Assembly (NCBI GenBank): GCA_948466735.1
Contig: CAOKBR010000009.1
Span: 1 to 33,189 of the forward strand
Length of the DNA stretch: 33,189 nucleotides
Direction of reading: 5' to 3'
Origin: an uncultured Mycoplasmatota bacterium
GTDB taxonomy: Bacteria > Bacillota_I > Bacilli_A > RF39 > UBA660
The notes beneath the pieces are model-generated. The model saw only the letters and a list, made by a program, of their open reading frames with translations. It ran no database searches and had not been told where the DNA came from. This document shows positions 214 to 32,159 of this stretch, piece after piece; positions within the stretch are counted from its first letter, which is position 1; each line of letters opens with the position of its first letter. The position numbers and the translations under genes were made by a program.

Positions 214-2664
214 ATGCTTTTCTTAACGGGAATTATTTTGCTATATACATCACACGCTTTATTTACTGTACCTACAGTAGAAAAATCTGCGATTACCATC
301 AAAGCAGGAACCATGGATCCAACGATAAAAGTAGATGACGTTGTTACCAATAAATTAACAGTACCTGCGAAAGGAGAAAAAGTGTTTACTGTAACTTTTG
401 AAAATTTGAATCCTGTTACAGGAGAATTTCTATTTTATTATATAGAAAGTATTCCTAATGATGTATATATGGGATATCTAGAAAATGAAGGATTTGATGT
501 GCCAGCTTCTACCAATATTAAATTATCTCAAAGTGCTAAACAGACATATTCCATAAAAGTTAAGAATGATACTACTAAAAGTCAAACAATTACCTTAGGT
601 TCCTTAGGAGGATTAGAATTTACTACTTTGGAACTTCCTTCAAATACAAGGTTTATTTCACCGTATTGTTTTTCGTTTGATTATTCAACAGGAACAATTG
701 AGGATTATGCAAAAGATGAAATTTGTCCAAAGAATGTAATTATACCTGATAATATCAATAATGTAAATGTTGTTTCCATTGGAGAATATGCATTTCGTTC
801 TAATCAATTAACAAGCGTAACAATTCCAAATAGCGTAACTAATATTGAAAAAAGAGCATTTTTAAATAATCAATTAACCAGTGTAGAAATACCAAATAAT
901 GTAACAATGATTGGAGAATATGCATTTGGTAACAATAAATTAACAAGTGTAAAAATAGGAGATAGTGTAACGAGTATTGGAGATTATGCATTTACTAATA
1001 ATCAATTAACGAGTGTGGAAATACCAAATAGTGTAAAATACCTTAGTGGATTTGCTTCTAATCAATTAACCAATGTAGTGATACCAAATAATGTAATATC
1101 TATTGGATATAGTGCATTTTCTTATAATCAATTAACAAGTGTAACAATTCCTGATAGTGTAACAACAATTGGAGATTATGCATTTACTAATAATCAATTA
1201 ACGAGTGTGGAAATACCTAATAGTGTAATAAGTATTGAAAGAGGATCATTTACTAATAATCAATTAACAAGTATAGAAATACCTGATAGTGTTACTAGTA
1301 TTGGACAAAGTGCTTTTGAAAGTAATCAATTAGCAAGTGTAACAATACCAAATAAAATAACAACCATTAAAAATTCTGTATTTAAAAATAATCAATTAAC
1401 GAGTGTAGAAATACCAAATGGTGTAACAAGTATTGAAGGTTCTGCCTTTTTAAATAACAAATTGACAAATGTAATAATTCCAAATGGTGTAACAAGAATT
1501 GGCGATAAGGCTTTTAAGACAAATCAATTAGCAAGTGTAACAATACCAAATAGTGTGACAAATATTGAATATTCTGCTTTTGAAAGTAATCAACTAACTA
1601 GTATAAAAATACCAGATGGTGTGACATATATTGCAAGTTCTGTATTTCGCGATAATAATTTAACAAATGTAGCAATTCCAGATGGTGTGACAACAATTGG
1701 AGATAATGCATTTTCTTCTAATCAATTAACAGGTTTAATTATTCCAAATAACGTTACAAGTATTGGAGATTATGCATTTTATAGTAACAAATTAACAAAT
1801 GTAACTATTCCGAATAAGGTAACATCAATTGGAGAATACGCACTTTCTTTTAATCAATTAACGAGTGTGACAATTCCAAACACTATCAAAACAATTGAAA
1901 GGGGAACATTTTCTAATAATCAATTAGCAAGTGTAACAATACCAAATAGTGTAACAACGATTGAATCTTCTGCATTTGACTATAATAGATTAACGAGTGT
2001 AGAAATACCAAATAGTGTGACAACAATTGGATCTTCTGCATTTAGATTCAATCGATTAGAACAGGTAATAATTCCAAATAGTGTAACATCTATTGATTAT
2101 TCTACATTTGAATATAATGAATTAATAAGTGTGACAATTCCATATAGCGTAACATCGATTGGATCTTCTGCATTTCGTTCCAATAAGCTTACAAATATAA
2201 TAATACCAAATACTGTAAAAAGCATAGGAAAAAACGCATTTGAGAGAAATGAATTAACTAATGTAACAATTCCAAATAGCATAACTTATATAAATGAGTA
2301 TGCATTTGCAAAAAATAAATTAACAAAAGTAAATATTCCAAATAGTGTAACAATTATTGGAAAAGAAGCATTTTTTGATAATCAATTAACAAGTGTAGAA
2401 ATACCAGATAGTGTAACAAGTATTGGATTGTCCGCATTTGAAAACAATAAAATAACAAGTATAACGATAGGAAGGGGGGTAACAACAATAGAGAATTATG
2501 CATTATATAAGCACTCTTCTTCAAATTCAACTTTAGAAAAGATTATTAATAAAACAGGTCGAGAATTTGATTGGCAAGCGATTACTAGAGGTAGTAGTGC
2601 AGCAACTTTTGTAACAGGAGTTATTCCTCATGCTAATGGAGATATCACGGTTACTAGTGAATAG
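214..2664 (+). CDS. BspA-type leucine-rich-repeat surface protein, membrane-anchored at the N-terminus
   Basis: Large extracellular protein built mainly of LRR_5 (BspA-type) repeats, a family linked to adhesion and surface interactions. In order: an N-terminal hydrophobic segment, a beta-rich domain (about residues 25-145), roughly 27 repeats of 22 residues with the pattern IPxSVTxIGxxAFxxNQLTS, and a short non-repeat tail containing FVTGVIP. No LPXTG-type sorting signal is seen, so anchoring is probably by the N-terminal segment. The start is uncertain: ATG 214 falls inside the hydrophobic segment, while the frame stays open upstream to 46 and encodes a Lys- and Cys-rich stretch that looks like a cytoplasmic tail (NPISDKDKKNKSCSF, about 115-159). 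No ATG, GTG or TTG lies in that extension, although a purine run AGGGGAGGGGG sits at 91-101. The true start may be a rare codon, or the 5' end may carry a small indel. Confidence 0.85.
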   Translation: MLFLTGIILLYTSHALFTVPTVEKSAITIKAGTMDPTIKVDDVVTNKLTVPAKGEKVFTVTFENLNPVTGEFLFYYIESIPNDVYMGYLENEGFDVPASTNIKLSQSAKQTYSIKVKNDTTKSQTITLGSLGGLEFTTLELPSNTRFISPYCFSFDYSTGTIEDYAKDEICPKNVIIPDNINNVNVVSIGEYAFRSNQLTSVTIPNSVTNIEKRAFLNNQLTSVEIPNNVTMIGEYAFGNNKLTSVKIGDSVTSIGDYAFTNNQLTSVEIPNSVKYLSGFASNQLTNVVIPNNVISIGYSAFSYNQLTSVTIPDSVTTIGDYAFTNNQLTSVEIPNSVISIERGSFTNNQLTSIEIPDSVTSIGQSAFESNQLASVTIPNKITTIKNSVFKNNQLTSVEIPNGVTSIEGSAFLNNKLTNVIIPNGVTRIGDKAFKTNQLASVTIPNSVTNIEYSAFESNQLTSIKIPDGVTYIASSVFRDNNLTNVAIPDGVTTIGDNAFSSNQLTGLIIPNNVTSIGDYAFYSNKLTNVTIPNKVTSIGEYALSFNQLTSVTIPNTIKTIERGTFSNNQLASVTIPNSVTTIESSAFDYNRLTSVEIPNSVTTIGSSAFRFNRLEQVIIPNSVTSIDYSTFEYNELISVTIPYSVTSIGSSAFRSNKLTNIIIPNTVKSIGKNAFERNELTNVTIPNSITYINEYAFAKNKLTKVNIPNSVTIIGKEAFFDNQLTSVEIPDSVTSIGLSAFENNKITSITIGRGVTTIENYALYKHSSSNSTLEKIINKTGREFDWQAITRGSSAATFVTGVIPHANGDITVTSE
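736..2511 (+). repeat. About 27 tandem 66-bp leucine-rich repeats
   Basis: The coding sequence repeats every 66 bp (22 residues), with the motif AATCAATTAAC-AGTGT recurring near each unit boundary. Units are diverged at the nucleotide level but strict in length. One unit near 1018-1077 is two residues shorter (VEIPNSVKYLSGFASNQLTN) and lacks the GxxAF signature. Such arrays can gain or lose units by recombination. Confidence 0.85.
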
Positions 2665-7219: not shown

Positions 7220-7256
7220 ATCTTATATGATTAAACTATTCAAGGAGGTATACATC

Positions 7257-8276
7257 ATGAAGAAAAAAAGAACTTGTATTGAATTGTTTGCAGGTGCTGG
7301 TGGACTTGCATTAGGATTGGAAAAAGCAGGTTTTGAAGAAGTTGGATTAGTTGAATTTGATAAAACGGCATGTGAAACATTAAGAATAAATAGACCAAGG
7401 TGGAATGTAATAGAAGAAGATATTGTAGAAGTATCTAAAAGAGATTTGTTAAAAGAATTCAAGTTAAAGTCTAGAGAATTAGATTTATTATCCGGTGGTT
7501 ACCCATGTCAATCTTTTAGTTATGCTGGAAAAAAATTAGGACTTGAGGATGTAAGAGGAACAATGTTTTATTATTATGCAGAGTTTATTAAACAACTACA
7601 ACCAAAAATGTTTTTAGCAGAAAATGTTAAGGGGTTAACTACACATGATGGAGGAAAAACTATTCAAACAATGATTGATGTATTTGAAGAATTAGGATAT
7701 AAAGTTGAATGGAAAGTGTTAAATGCATGGGATTATGGTGTGGCAGAAAAAAGACAACGAGTCGTAATAATTGGAATTAGAAATGATTTAATAGATAAAG
7801 TTAAATTTGAATATCCACTTCCACATGAATATAAACCAGTTCTGAGAGATGTTCTTCAAAATGTTCCAGATTCTGTTGGAGCAAAATATCCAGAAAATAA
7901 AAGAAAAGTATTTGATTTAGTTCCACCTGGAGGATATTGGAGAGATTTACCAGATGATGTCGCCCGTGAGTATATGAAGTCATGCTATTTTATGGGTGGA
8001 GGAAGAACTGGTATTGCTAGAAGATTATCATGGGATGAACCATCATTGACTTTAACTTGTTCTCCTATGATGAAACAAACGGATAGATGTCATCCAGATG
8101 AAAGTAGACCATTTACAACAAGAGAATATGCAAGAATACAATCCTTCCCAGATGAGTGGAATTTCGCTGGTAAAATGGGAGATATTTATAAGCAAATTGG
8201 AAATGCAGTTCCAGTTAACTTAGCAAAATGTGTTGGAGAATCAATTATGAATGCATTGAATGGAGGTAATGTTTAG
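7257..8276 (+). CDS. DNA (cytosine-5) methyltransferase of a type II restriction-modification system
   Basis: Transfers a methyl group from S-adenosylmethionine to C5 of cytosine in the recognition site, protecting host DNA. The 339 aa contain the motifs in canonical order: I (ELFAGAGGLALGLEKAGF, residues 9-26), IV with catalytic Cys84 (GGYPCQSFSYAGKK), VI (ENVKG), VIII (KRQRVVIIG), the variable target-recognition region, IX (REYARIQSFPDEW) and X (YKQIGNAVPV). ATG 7257 is chosen over 7227 because AAGGAGG precedes it and the shorter product starts just before motif I. The stop TAG is immediately followed by the endonuclease ATG, so translation is probably coupled. By its partner, the target is likely GGNCC-like; that is inference. 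Confidence 0.95.
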   Translation: MKKKRTCIELFAGAGGLALGLEKAGFEEVGLVEFDKTACETLRINRPRWNVIEEDIVEVSKRDLLKEFKLKSRELDLLSGGYPCQSFSYAGKKLGLEDVRGTMFYYYAEFIKQLQPKMFLAENVKGLTTHDGGKTIQTMIDVFEELGYKVEWKVLNAWDYGVAEKRQRVVIIGIRNDLIDKVKFEYPLPHEYKPVLRDVLQNVPDSVGAKYPENKRKVFDLVPPGGYWRDLPDDVAREYMKSCYFMGGGRTGIARRLSWDEPSLTLTCSPMMKQTDRCHPDESRPFTTREYARIQSFPDEWNFAGKMGDIYKQIGNAVPVNLAKCVGESIMNALNGGNV

Positions 8277-9032
8277 ATGTTGGAATTAGATTTTATTTCA
8301 AGAGAAGATTTTAAAAATCATGTTGCTAATACAATTAAAACTTATGATAATACATTGAAAAGTATTGACCTTCAAAGTTTTAATAGTAACATAATAGACC
8401 CTATTAAATTAACTTTTGATAGCAAGGTTTATAGAAAAAGTATTGAAGAAGTAATTGAAAATGAACTTGTTAGACAAAGGGATAAAACAAATACAAATGC
8501 AATCGGTTATTTTCATCAAAATCTTTTTAAATACATTAAAAATTGTGAGGTTCCACAGGCGGGATTTGATGTTATATATACTAAACCAGATGGCAGTAAA
8601 ATTTATGTAGAGATGAAGAACAAACATAATACAATGAATTCTTCTTCATCACAAAAGACATATATGAGAATGCTTAATCAGATTTTAACAGAAGATAATT
8701 GTAATTGTTACTTGGTTGAAATAATTGCCAAAAGAAGTCAGAATATTACATGGGCAGTATCACTTGATTCGGACAGAGTATCAAACGATAGAATTAAAAG
8801 AGTATCAATAGATAAATTTTATGAAGAAGTGACTGGCAATAAAAATGCATTCTACCTTATTTGTAAAGCCTTACCAACAATAGTAGATGAAATCATCAGT
8901 GAAAATTCTGGAATGAGTGTTGAAAAAGATTCTGTTATTGAAGAGTTAAAAGAAAAAAATCCAGATGTTTTGAAATCCTTATATTTACTTGCATTTAGTA
9001 CATACGAAGGATTTAAAGAAGAATGCGAGTAA
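8277..9032 (+). CDS. Type II restriction endonuclease, Eco47II family
   Basis: Cleaves unmethylated recognition sites. The 251 aa contain the family's signature region VEMKNKHNTMNSSSSQKTYM (residues 111-130) and a PD-(D/E)XK core with Asp98 in AGFDVIYTKPDG, Glu112 and Lys114 in YVEMKNK. Known Eco47II/Sau96I-like enzymes cut GGNCC; the exact specificity here is inferred from the family only. The gene starts directly at the base after the methyltransferase stop with no spacer, a layout that delays endonuclease synthesis relative to the methyltransferase. Both catalytic proteins look intact. Confidence 0.9.
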   Translation: MLELDFISREDFKNHVANTIKTYDNTLKSIDLQSFNSNIIDPIKLTFDSKVYRKSIEEVIENELVRQRDKTNTNAIGYFHQNLFKYIKNCEVPQAGFDVIYTKPDGSKIYVEMKNKHNTMNSSSSQKTYMRMLNQILTEDNCNCYLVEIIAKRSQNITWAVSLDSDRVSNDRIKRVSIDKFYEEVTGNKNAFYLICKALPTIVDEIISENSGMSVEKDSVIEELKEKNPDVLKSLYLLAFSTYEGFKEECE

Positions 9033-15960: not shown

Positions 15961-15978
15961 AGATATGGATGTGATAGA

Positions 15979-17280
15979 ATGAAATATTACTGTATAGGAA
16001 TTAAAGGTGCTGGGATGAGTACTTTAGCTCAAATTTTATTTGATTTAGGTCATGAAGTATCAGGATATGATGATACAATAGAATATAAATTTACTGAAGA
16101 AGGTTTGAAAAAAAGAAACATTCCTATTTATCATGATCAATCACATGAAATAGATAAAGATACGATTGTAACTTTCTCGAAAGCCTTTTCTATGGATCAT
16201 AAAGAAATCAAAAGAGTAAAAGAATTAGGGCTAACCATTGAATCATATCATGACTTATTAGGAAAATTAACCAAGGAATTTAAAACGATCGCTGTTAGTG
16301 GAACACACGGAAAAACAACGACTAGTTCTTTAATTACCCATATTTTAAAAAAGCATAAAGGAGTAAATTACTTTATTGGTGATGGCACAGGGTACGCATC
16401 ACGTGAAAATTCTTTATTTGTTATTGAATCTTGTGAATACCAAAAACACTTTTTAGCCTATTATCCTACTGTTGCTGTTATTACCAATATTGAACTAGAA
16501 CATACCGAGTGCTATGATGGAATAGAAGATATCATTCATACTTTTGAAACGTTTGCGAATAAAGCAGAATTAGTAGTAGCCTGTGGTGATGATCAAAATG
16601 TTCGCAAAATGAATATCAAAGGAAAAACCATTTACTATGGATTTCAAGAAGATAATGACCTAGTGGCAAAAAATATTTACTTTAATCAAAAGGGTAGTAG
16701 TTTCGATGTTTATTTGCATCAAAAGTTTTATGGACACTTCGATTTACCATTATATGGAGAGCATATGGTGTTAAATACTTTAGCTACTATTGCTGTATGT
16801 AATTTAGAAGAAGTTACAAAAGAAGAAATTCACGATGAATTACTAACTTTTGTCAATGCTAAACGACGTTTTAAAGAAGAAGTAGTAGGGGATAATATCA
16901 TTATTGATGATTATGCTCATCATCCAACAGAAATAGCAGTGACCATTAAAGCAGCAAGACAAAAATATCAAGATAGAGAAATTGTCGCAGTATTTAAACC
17001 TAATACTTATTCTAGAACAAAAGAAATGTATTCGTGGTTTGCTGATGTTTTAAATCTAGCCGATGTAAGTTATGTTACCCCAATTGATTGCAATCGAGAA
17101 AAAAAAGAAGATTATGATAATGTTACATCAAACTTAATTATTGATAAACTAAATAATGGCTACCTTTTAAAAGAAGAAGATGTATCTATATTAAAAAAAC
17201 ACAACCACGCAGTTATTTGTTTTATGAGTTGTGCAGATGTTAGCCATTTGATAAAAAACTATAAAAAGCTTTATGAATAG
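15979..17280 (+). CDS. murC: UDP-N-acetylmuramate--L-alanine ligase
   Basis: ATP-dependent ligase that adds L-alanine to UDP-MurNAc in cytoplasmic peptidoglycan precursor synthesis. The 433 aa include the N-terminal Rossmann motif GIKGAGMSTLAQIL (residues 6-19), the P-loop VSGTHGKTTTSSLI, the central-domain region FVIESCEYQKHFLAYYP followed by ITNIELEHTECYDG, and the C-terminal IDDYAHHPTEI. The order and length match MurC. ATG 15979 is chosen since it begins directly at the Rossmann strand (MKYYCIGIKGAG); the open frame to 15928 adds residues that overlap the promoter. Its presence shows that the organism makes a cell wall. Confidence 0.95.
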   Translation: MKYYCIGIKGAGMSTLAQILFDLGHEVSGYDDTIEYKFTEEGLKKRNIPIYHDQSHEIDKDTIVTFSKAFSMDHKEIKRVKELGLTIESYHDLLGKLTKEFKTIAVSGTHGKTTTSSLITHILKKHKGVNYFIGDGTGYASRENSLFVIESCEYQKHFLAYYPTVAVITNIELEHTECYDGIEDIIHTFETFANKAELVVACGDDQNVRKMNIKGKTIYYGFQEDNDLVAKNIYFNQKGSSFDVYLHQKFYGHFDLPLYGEHMVLNTLATIAVCNLEEVTKEEIHDELLTFVNAKRRFKEEVVGDNIIIDDYAHHPTEIAVTIKAARQKYQDREIVAVFKPNTYSRTKEMYSWFADVLNLADVSYVTPIDCNREKKEDYDNVTSNLIIDKLNNGYLLKEEDVSILKKHNHAVICFMSCADVSHLIKNYKKLYE

Positions 17281-31252: not shown

Positions 31253-31329
31253 GGCGAGATAGCTCAGTTGGCTAGAGCACTGCGTTCATACCGCAGGTGT
31301 CGAGGGTTCGAATCCCCCTCTCGCTACCA
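31253..31329 (+). tRNA. tRNA-Met (anticodon CAT)
   Basis: Acceptor GGCGAGA/TCTCGCT (first pair G-T), D arm GCTC/GAGC, anticodon stem CTGCG/CGCAG around TTCATAC, T arm with loop TTCGAAT, encoded CCA at 31327-31329. It lacks the initiator features I would expect (three G-C pairs at the base of the anticodon stem), so it is elongator Met or possibly Ile2 with lysidine. The accessory region with the toxin-antitoxin locus follows. Confidence 0.93.
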
Positions 31330-31366
31330 TTGGGAAATCTGTTCGAACTTTTCGAACTTAAGATAG

Positions 31367-31390
31367 GAGACTTGCCAAAAGTCTTTTTTT
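31367..31390 (+). terminator. Terminator after tRNA-Met
   Basis: AGACTT (31368-31373) pairs with AAGTCT (31379-31384) around GCCAA, followed by TTTTTT. A second inverted repeat GTTCGAA/TTCGAAC lies just upstream at 31341-31357. Confidence 0.8.
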
Positions 31391-31417
31391 ATGATATTAT
31401 GAATATGTCAAGGAAAC

Positions 31418-31446
31418 TTGCATAAAATAAAAAAGGGAAATACATA
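31418..31446 (+). promoter_or_regulatory. Promoter of the candidate antitoxin RNA
   Basis: TTGCAT (31418-31423), a 17-bp spacer and TACATA (31441-31446). Predicted transcription start is near 31453, which puts the repeat GTTGAGTACTTACC at the extreme 5' end of the RNA. Confidence 0.6.
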
Positions 31447-31452
31447 ACTTTC

Positions 31453-31523
31453 GCGAGTTGAGTACTTACCCAAATTTAATTGTTTAAGTACTCAATCTGC
31501 AAAAAGATTAAGTACTATTTTTT
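31453..31523 (+). ncRNA. Candidate type I antitoxin RNA, convergent with the toxin gene
   Basis: About 70 nt between the promoter and a terminator. The 5' half can fold as a perfect 11-bp hairpin, TTGAGTACTTA (31458-31468) with TAAGTACTCAA (31485-31495). The same 3' strand can instead pair with 31506-31516 (AGTACT with AGTACT, plus AATC/GATT, one mismatch) to form the terminator, followed by TTTTTT at 31518-31523. The TAAGTACTCAA segment is complementary to the 5' leader of the toxin mRNA, and the 3' end overlaps the toxin coding region in antisense. This mirrors RNA II of par/Fst loci. Confidence 0.65.
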
Positions 31524-31647
31524 ATACATAGAATCAGTAAAGAGACTACTAATAAAATGATAATTAATATTAGAAATGAGATTAATAAATCTTTTTTCTT
31601 CATAAATATCAAGCCTCCTTTCAAAAGAAAGTTGGCAAGTACTCAAC
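31457..31647. repeat. AAGTACTCAA direct/inverted repeats shared by toxin and antitoxin transcripts
   Basis: On the plus strand, AAGTACTCAA occurs at 31486-31495 and at 31637-31646 (direct repeats, comparable to DRb and DRa of par loci). AAGTACT recurs at 31510-31516. The inverted copy GTTGAGTACTTACC at 31457-31470 differs by one base from the minus-strand GTTGAGTACTTGCC at 31647-31634. Confidence 0.85.
31508..31603 (-). CDS. Putative type I toxin, 31-aa hydrophobic peptide
   Basis: Reads MKKKDLLISFLILIIILL then a further hydrophobic stretch and CIKNST: a basic N-terminus, one membrane helix of about 22 residues rich in Leu and Ile, and a short basic tail. That is the form of type I toxins which insert in the membrane. 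The minus strand has a full AAAGGAGG ribosome binding site (31621-31614), 10 bases before ATG 31603. The mRNA 5' leader carries GTTGAGTACTTGCC, which can pair with the antitoxin RNA and also with the message's own 3' end. The stop lies inside the antitoxin terminator. It is not obviously homologous to Fst at residue level; the call rests on size, hydrophobicity and locus architecture. Confidence 0.7.
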   Translation of the reverse strand: MKKKDLLISFLILIIILLVVSLLILCIKNST

Positions 31648-31667
31648 AGTTAGTATTTCCTAATAAA

Positions 31668-31696
31668 ATTATATAACATTAAAATTAACTTAACAA
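31668..31696 (-). promoter_or_regulatory. Promoter of the toxin gene
   Basis: Minus strand: TTGTTA (31696-31691), a 17-bp spacer and perfect TATAAT (31673-31668). Predicted start near 31661 gives a 58-nt leader including the repeat and the ribosome binding site. Confidence 0.82.
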
Positions 31697-31854
31697 GTTA
31701 ACATGACAATATTTATAAAAATAATTTATAAATCCACCTACGTTTTGATACTTATGTCAAAACGTATAGGGGTATCTAATAAATTTATCATTTACAAAAT
31801 CAATATAATATGGTATTATGTATATAGATGGAGGGAACTCCATATAATAAAAAG

Positions 31855-31935
31855 GAACACAAGACTTATCGCAAAGTTGAGTGCTAGCCAAATTGGTTTA
31901 CACCTTAATTCACTGAATTAGGTGTTATTTTTTTA
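31855..31935 (+). ncRNA. Second, diverged antitoxin-like RNA
   Basis: TATAAT at 31843-31848 precedes AAGACTTATCGCAAAGTTGA at 31861-31880, which aligns with the start of the first RNA (TTTCGCGAGTTGAG). The following GTGCTAGCC differs from GTACTTACC. A terminator, ACACC-TAATTC (31900-31910 with one bulge) against GAATTAGGTGT (31915-31925) and then a T run, ends it near 31935. ATGGAG/CTCCAT (31828-31843) is an inverted repeat overlapping the -10. Confidence 0.45.
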
Positions 31936-31990
31936 TTTCGGCTACTAATAAAAGTAGAAGGAACAAAATGAGAATAATGTTATTTAGAAC
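31925..31990 (-). pseudogene. Hydrophobic ORF remnant opposite the second RNA
   Basis: On the minus strand a frame ending at TAA 31925 encodes LNNIILILFLLLLLVAEIKK, a membrane-like segment with a basic tail, in the same position relative to the RNA terminator as the intact toxin. No ATG, GTG or TTG start and no ribosome binding site precede it, so it looks like a dead toxin copy. Confidence 0.4.
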
Positions 31991-32159
31991 TTTTAAAATA
32001 AAAAGCAGTATACAATACTAACAAAAGACTTGTGTAAGCAAGCAAAATTAGCTAATATTGATTATAGGAGAGAAAAAAATAATGATTAGAAAAAAGAATA
32101 GATCATAACAGAAAATTCGTTTGAGAGTAATTTAAGTTAAATTTGATAGGAGTGAAAGT

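What the first reader, a model, noticed from the sequence alone, without database searches (positions are those of the whole stretch)
31418..31696. Compact type I toxin-antitoxin locus with par/Fst-like architecture, toxin sequence not recognised
Seen directly: a 31-codon hydrophobic ORF on the minus strand with a full AAAGGAGG site and a TTGTTA-17-TATAAT promoter; a convergent plus-strand unit of about 70 nt with its own promoter and a terminator that overlaps the toxin 3' end; AAGTACTCAA repeats that place complementary sequence in the toxin 5' leader and in the antitoxin RNA. Known: this is the layout of par (RNA I/RNA II, DRa/DRb, shared terminator) from pAD1 and chromosomal relatives. Inference: the peptide is a membrane toxin held off by the RNA. 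The peptide does not look like Fst itself, so it may be a new family. Too short for most gene callers.
Basis: partly seen in the sequence, partly recalled or inferred. Interest (0 to 1): 0.88.

Follow-up and report, generated by a model that had tools for sequence, protein, structure and literature searches.

The report
Likely new type I toxin-antitoxin family
A tiny gene for a membrane peptide of about 30 residues faces a small antisense RNA that can pair with its message; the pair belongs to a multi-copy family, unknown to the libraries searched, in one lineage of uncultured bacteria, and looks like a new kind of type I toxin-antitoxin system, although no toxicity has been tested.

Summary
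A 31-codon minus-strand ORF (31508-31603) with SD and promoter faces a plus-strand RNA (about 31407-31523, nearer 117 nt than 70) whose terminator overlaps the toxin 3' end. The unit recurs in the same genome, and a model of the RNA hits 213 of 288 genomes of the order, often in many copies. The peptide is under purifying selection (pN/pS 0.22).

It works like par, Hok and AapA modules but fails Fst membership (no profile match, no PxxxG, no acidic tail, nested instead of shared terminators). Pfam, NCBIfam, PHROGs and Rfam do not recognise what was scanned.

The window's own copy is atypical. One lost A changes the peptide end from IKK to IKNST. A second unit (31791-32010) keeps the antitoxin and has lost the toxin start.

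Verdict: new family (variant) of type I toxin-antitoxin, by inference.

The parts
31508..31603 (-). ORF of 31 codons, hydrophobic with lysines at both ends; predicted toxin (type A; relatives 29 aa ending IKK)
   Evidence: pN/pS 0.22 over 52 unique 29-aa ORFs, 0.77 and 2.76 in the other two frames
31614..31621 (-). Shine-Dalgarno AAAGGAGG, in a local hairpin GCC..CTTTC-TTTT-GAAAG..GGC
   Evidence: local hairpin touching the SD region in 117 of 118 copies
31668..31696 (-). Toxin promoter TTGTTA-17-TATAAT
   Evidence: best spacer 17 in 87 of 119 copies
31634..31660 (-). Toxin 5' leader element; can pair with the antitoxin arm and with the 3' terminator of its own mRNA
31407..31523 (+). Antitoxin RNA (predicted, about 117 nt)
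   Evidence: R1 hit 31406-31522, E 6.6e-15 (the window was one of the 57 sequences of R1); folds better than 200 of 200 shuffles
31372..31400 (+). Antitoxin promoter TTGCCA-17-TATTAT
   Evidence: spacer 17 in 116 of 120 copies
31409..31420 (+). 5' hairpin of antitoxin, CAAG-GAAA-CTTG
   Evidence: Covarying forms CAAG/CTTG, GAAG/CTTC, GCAGG/CCTGC
31435..31471 (.). Middle hairpin of the antitoxin; on the minus strand the toxin terminator (U-rich tract 31420-31434) and partner of the toxin leader
31487..31523 (+). Antitoxin terminator hairpin; rising arm matches the toxin leader; overlaps the toxin stop; inverted in this copy
   Evidence: e.g. C-G 29, U-A 27 at columns 104-133
31368..31390 (+). 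Terminator-like hairpin AGACTT-gccaa-AAGTCT plus T-run after tRNA-Met, overlapping the antitoxin -35 box
   Evidence: T-tailed hairpins here in 39 of 118 copies, some of them AT-only
31791..31932 (+). Second antitoxin unit: promoter 31791-31819, RNA 31826-31932
   Evidence: R1 E 1.6e-5; fold z -3.46
31925..32010 (-). Remnant of the second unit's toxin (frame ...LLFILKVLNNIILILFLLLLLVAEIKK*, no SD, no ATG/GTG/TTG start upstream of the hydrophobic part)
   Evidence: likeness to type C peptides judged by eye

Best explanation
A type I toxin-antitoxin module of a family not labelled in the libraries searched. The minus-strand mRNA (about 238 nt) encodes a single-pass membrane peptide, the presumed toxin. 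The full-length mRNA folds its 5' leader onto its 3' terminator, and a local hairpin covers the SD, so the fresh message is inert (predicted; supported by covariation). After 3' trimming the leader is freed and the message can be translated (inferred from Hok and AapA). The plus-strand RNA is complementary to about 100 nt of the toxin 3' UTR, and the rising arm of its terminator also matches the leader just upstream of the SD; it would bind both and block translation or trigger RNase III decay (sites supported by covariation, effect inferred). If the antitoxin falls, the peptide is made and harms the membrane (inferred). The window's own copy may be weakened.
For: Purifying selection: pN/pS 0.22 (52 type A ORFs), 0.29 (19 type B), against 0.77-2.76 in shifted frames. 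Leader and antitoxin-arm core identical in 105 of 121 copies (permuted mean 44.7, max 60); both change on 12 of 240 tree branches, 8 of the 12 to identical cores. Leader:arm 10 pairs 90.2% standard against 27-46% slid; leader:3' terminator 27 pairs 90.3% against 30-48% slid, 22 pairs with double changes against 9-15. Leader pairs with the 3' terminator region (>0.5) in 114 of 118 copies. Window mRNA fold z -8.86, 0 of 200 shuffles as stable. In 43 diverged copies leader:own 3' terminator -26.9 kcal/mol against -13.3 shuffled; leader:own antitoxin arm -17.3 against -13.6. Promoter score 9 or more of 12: antitoxin 114 of 120 (8 shuffled), toxin 87 of 119 (26 shuffled). Antitoxin terminator and middle hairpins each form in 115 of 118 copies. 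213 of 288 genomes of the order, up to 13 hits, the most scored.
Against: No transcript or toxicity data. Promoter matches in the window alone are at chance level. The arm lies in a near-palindromic hairpin, so leader:arm covariation could reflect pairing within the mRNA (it does in part in the window's fold). The 27 fold-back pairs were picked from folds of the same copies, which favours them over slid pairs; 7 leader:arm pairs show double changes but 5-7 do when slid (the cells differ, 90 against 8-17). Leader alone changes on 10 branches, arm alone on 4. The window is one of 2 of 118 copies whose antitoxin terminator arm is predicted to pair with the middle arm instead of forming the terminator. 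Cognate antitoxin is the best leader partner in its genome in 16 of 42 (chance 6.0). Type C selection weak (0.66, 6 ORFs).
Confidence: 0.75

Rival explanations
1. It is a diverged member of the Fst/par (RNA I/RNA II) family.
For: Convergent promoters, repeat-based complementarity between leader and antitoxin, SD hairpin, 5' end sequestered: features listed for par in PMC7472228 (passages).
Against: No Pfam Fst match among 8 peptides at E up to 10; no PF13955 hit in 21 genomes (but the control search rang in only 1 of 14 genomes and below cut-off, so the model is insensitive); no PxxxG, no acidic tail; nested terminators.
Confidence: 0.07
2. The peptide is a regulated small membrane protein with a useful role, not a toxin; the antisense RNA tunes its level.
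For: No toxicity shown; peptide conserved, family multi-copy.
Against: Predicted multi-layer shut-off; units that lost the toxin start but keep the antitoxin (window 31791-32010; several); patchy presence (75 of 288 genomes without a hit); 85-89% DNA identity in genomes whose neighbour protein is 47-58% identical.
Confidence: 0.13
3. The unit is a small mobile repeat (MITE-like, with inverted ends) and the ORF is incidental.
For: Dispersed and tandem copies, inverted repeats at the ends, 25 of 121 copies 14-51 bp after a tRNA gene.
Against: Purifying selection on the ORF, kept promoters, SD hairpin and stems. Mobility and toxin function do not exclude each other.
Confidence: 0.06

Closest known systems
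par of pAD1 (Fst, RNA I/RNA II) and chromosomal relatives
   Same: Convergent toxin mRNA and short antisense RNA, direct repeats giving complementarity near the SD, SD hairpin, 5' end sequestered (PMC7472228 passages)
   Different: No profile match, no PxxxG or acidic tail; nested separate terminators; antitoxin about 117 nt against the about 40 nt given there; leader pairs with the terminator at the 3' end
Hok/Sok and AapA/IsoA (5'-3' long-distance interaction)
   Same: Full-length mRNA predicted shut by pairing of 5' and 3' ends; several copies per chromosome (AapA; PMC6733600 passages)
   Different: In aapA3 the SD itself is held by the 3' anti-SD; here the leader upstream of the SD is paired and the SD has its own hairpin; different peptides
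TxpA/RatA and BsrG/SR4 of Bacillus subtilis
   Same: Convergent RNAs overlapping at the 3' ends by about 75 and 120 nt (PMC4147584 passages); here about 100 nt by the predicted ends
   Different: Toxin about 29 aa against 59 (TxpA); leader repeat matched to the antitoxin, while RatA has no complementarity to the translation start; no library match to these families in the peptides scanned

Membership tests
Type I toxin-antitoxin (works like) | Small hydrophobic peptide, conserved as protein | tested here: met
   (types A and B; type C weak)
Type I toxin-antitoxin (works like) | Antisense RNA complementary to the toxin mRNA | tested here: met
   Overlap by sequence; leader pairing covaries
Type I toxin-antitoxin (works like) | Peptide toxic, RNA rescues | not testable with these tools
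   Needs an expression assay
Type I toxin-antitoxin (works like) | Both RNAs transcribed | not testable with these tools
   Only promoter and terminator conservation
Fst/par | Fst profile, PxxxG motif, charged C-terminal tail | tested here: not met
   (weak control); sequences; motif and tail from PMC7472228
Fst/par | Convergent promoters | tested here: met
Fst/par | Direct repeats pairing antitoxin with toxin leader | tested here: met
   One repeat per RNA, not the pair DRa/DRb
Fst/par | Shared bidirectional terminator | tested here: not met
   Two nested terminators, by sequence and conservation
Hok/AapA-type fold-back | 5' and 3' ends of full-length mRNA pair | tested here: met
   114 of 118 copies, covariation; prediction only
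Hok/AapA-type fold-back | 3' trimming activates translation | not testable with these tools
   Needs RNA analysis
Rfam families | Match above gathering score | tested here: not met
   Only tRNA in the window and in 7 loci

The most novel reading that the evidence does not exclude
A lineage-restricted superfamily of type I modules, with several unlike toxin types and matched RNA 'codes' (leader cores such as GAGTACTT, GAGTGCTT, GAGTGTCT, GGGTGAT, AGGTGCAC, CAGATGT), has expanded to ten or more copies in genomes of about 1.2 Mb. The leader must fit two partners at once, its own 3' end and the antitoxin; codes diverge between toxin types so that types do not silence one another, while loci of one type share a code.
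Probability: 0.5. Interest if true: 0.75.

Novelty: new variant of a known kind. Interest (0 to 1): 0.64.

Why it matters
Type I modules are thought to look rare because searches start from known loci (stated in PMC12390103, passages). Here RNA covariation brings out a family that the scanned protein and RNA libraries miss, in 213 of 288 searched genomes of one order, at high copy number in very small genomes. It offers many natural variants of one RNA switch, with compensatory changes, for testing how leader, fold-back and antitoxin compete, and why reduced genomes keep so many copies.

Tried and rejected
Known families: eight peptides in Pfam and NCBIfam gave only hits below the curated cut-offs (lowest E 0.023, SecE); four of them in PHROGs, nothing better than E 1.1; one in the PDB, none. 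Fst.

Phage or plasmid carriage: window DNA gave no match in phages or plasmids, one peptide none in plasmids, two exact patterns none in viral contigs. A looser pattern gave 15 viral contigs, none with an RNA-model match, so chance.

Locus-by-locus insulation of paralogues: not supported. Cognate leader:antitoxin energy beats other toxin types (-16.7 against -12.9 kcal/mol, p 2e-7) but not loci of the same type (-15.6, p 0.18).

Antitoxin as an attenuator (middle arm against terminator arm), suggested by the inverted repeat and by the window's own fold: rejected for the family, since 115 of 118 copies are predicted to form the terminator and only 2, the window among them, the alternative. For the window copy it stays open.

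First-pass numbers replaced: the blastn tally of 286 of 386 genomes includes many weak hits near 1e-4; the first pN/pS for type A, 0.48, used ORFs out of register and was redone on 29-aa ORFs.

Full report
What is there. The window is contig C9 of a 1.06 Mb draft genome of 58 contigs. Downstream of a tRNA gene (31253-31326; Met) a plus-strand RNA unit and a minus-strand ORF face each other. The ORF (31603-31508) encodes MKKKDLLISFLILIIILLVVSLLILCIKNST behind AAAGGAGG and a TTGTTA-17-TATAAT promoter. The plus-strand promoter kept in relatives is TTGCCA-17-TATTAT (31372-31400). It predicts an RNA of about 117 nt with a 5' CAAG-GAAA-CTTG hairpin, a middle hairpin and a terminator hairpin ending near 31523. 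On the minus strand the middle hairpin is followed by a U-rich tract and serves as the toxin's terminator, so the two terminators are nested, not shared.

It is not chance. The promoter matches alone would be (6 found, 5.7 expected). But the unit recurs at 85% identity elsewhere in the genome. From related genomes 121 near full-length copies were collected, picked from the best hits and so biased towards this toxin type. By eye, similarity fades beyond the two promoters.

Spread. A covariance model of the antitoxin (57 sequences; 15 pairs) matches 213 of 288 genomes of the order at E <= 0.001, each listed hit in the window's own family, with up to 13 hits per genome, the most that was scored. 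It matches 37 of 395 genomes of the class, 36 in this family and 1 in another, and 5 of 295 of the phylum, all in this family. The own genome has 5 hits at E <= 0.001 and a sixth at 0.04. An exact pattern of the toxin start gave 78 stretches in named records, all metagenome-assembled, labelled Bacilli, Tenericutes, Erysipelotrichaceae, Mycoplasma, Bacillales, Clostridia, Firmicutes or 'bacterium'; the titles that show a host source name goat and deer gut sites and 'Lapin' (rabbit, by my reading). No lineage name is given for the window, so I name no order. No phage, plasmid or viral carriage was found.

The peptide. Most type A relatives are 29 aa, MKKKDLLISFLILIIILLIVSLMILCIKK. Other types are MSKKDFLILSLILIIFLLIALLFTFVI and MKTKTFIIKVLKLIAIILLLSTLLVLAIKK and, in paralogues, MTKREFSQFIIIILLFILVFIILFK and MRKQEKYLCTIIILLI.... 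pN/pS is 0.22 (52 unique type A ORFs), 0.29 (19 type B) and 0.66 (6 type C, weak), against 0.77-2.76 in other frames for A and B and 0.79-0.88 for C. An ORF of 22-40 aa was found in 115 of 121 copies. Of the six misses, L065 and L049 carry it but lie outside the searched offset, L091 and L074 have ORFs of 49-51 aa, L044 is frameshifted and in L099 none was found. Eight peptides met no library family above cut-off.

The RNA. The four-base core of the leader equals that of the antitoxin terminator arm in 105 of 121 copies (permuted mean 44.7, maximum 60). Alleles GTAC (54), GTGC (42), GTGT (5), GTGA (3) and GTGG (1) recur in both places. On a tree made without these columns both change on 12 of 240 branches, the leader alone on 10, the arm alone on 4; independence would give about 1.5 joint changes (22 x 16 / 240, my arithmetic). 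Eight of the 12 lead to identical cores; the other four are single tips with unlike cores. Ten leader:arm pairs are 90.2% standard against 27-46% when slid. Because the arm lies in a near-palindromic hairpin, the leader could also pair with the toxin's own copy of it, as in part it does in the window's lowest-energy fold. My data do not separate the two.

The strongest partner of the leader is the toxin's own terminator region: 27 pairs, 90.3% standard against 30-48% slid, 22 pairs with double changes against 9-15 (the pairs were chosen from folds of these copies, which favours them); pairing above 0.5 in 114 of 118 copies; and in 43 copies of seven genomes, many with very different sequences, -26.9 kcal/mol against -13.3 for shuffled leaders. 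This is a 5'-3' closing helix as described for Hok and AapA mRNAs (PMC6733600, passages). A local hairpin covers the SD region in 117 of 118 copies. The antitoxin's middle and terminator hairpins each form in 115 of 118 copies.

The window's own copy is unusual. It has one A fewer than relatives at the end of the ORF, and it alone of 121 has the terminator hairpin in the opposite orientation, as if the stretch between the AGTACT arms had been flipped (inference). The copy may be impaired.

Reading. The evidence fits a type I module: message closed by fold-back and an SD hairpin, antitoxin covering the 3' UTR and matching the leader. Supported by data: anatomy, conservation, coevolution. Inferred: transcription, 3' trimming, block of translation, membrane damage. 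Horizontal spread is likely: loci 85-89% identical in DNA sit in five genomes whose protein matching window 15973-17277 (Mur-ligase-like by recall) is 47-58% identical. Of the ten genomes asked, two more gave long matches at 35-36%, one only partial matches at 22-33%, and two none.

Comparison. Against par/Fst (PMC7472228, passages) the layout agrees, but profile, PxxxG motif, acidic tail and shared terminator do not. Against TxpA/RatA and BsrG/SR4 (PMC4147584, passages) the 3' overlap agrees. I saw no paper on such a family in the listings for type I toxin-antitoxin with RF39 (none), with Tenericutes (2), in uncultured gut bacteria (6), on novel hydrophobic families (12 of 30 shown) and on T1TAdb (10 of 14 shown). 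Only open-licence papers are held, and T1TAdb itself was not consulted.

Codes. In genomes with many copies, cognate leader:antitoxin pairing beats pairing with other toxin types (-16.7 against -12.9 kcal/mol) but not with loci of the same type (-15.6); the cognate is best in 16 of 42 (chance 6.0). So any code is one of toxin types, not of single loci.

Noticed in passing
window 31791-32010: A second, diverged unit: antitoxin promoter, 5' hairpin ATGGAG-GGAA-CTCCAT and terminator kept, toxin start and SD lost; an orphan antitoxin.
   Followed up: partly
window 31487-31517: The antitoxin-terminator hairpin is the reverse complement of that in relatives, as if flipped between its AGTACT arms.
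   Followed up: partly
window 31253-31400; 26 of 121 copies: 25 copies lie 14-51 bp after a tRNA gene (Phe, Leu, Thr, Glu, Met, Arg, Ala) with the antitoxin end next to the tRNA 3' end; one further call (L122) is at the toxin end, in the other orientation. No background control was made. A terminator-like hairpin overlaps the antitoxin -35 box in the window. Possible insertion site or coupling to tRNA transcription.
   Followed up: partly
L087 (G343), L084 (G180), L095 (G241), L292 (G297): Tandem arrays of two or three units about 320-420 bp apart, in L292 with unlike toxin types.
   Followed up: no
L249 (G628:C32:11747-11857): A complete type C unit in one genome of another family of the class: transfer or contamination.
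   Followed up: no
window 7227-9032: ORFs that look like a DNA cytosine methyltransferase and a possible restriction endonuclease (from the translation only, no search run).
   Followed up: no
window 214-2664: 816-aa ORF with many repeats of the kind LTSVTIPNSVTxIGxxAF (BspA-like by recall, not searched).
   Followed up: no
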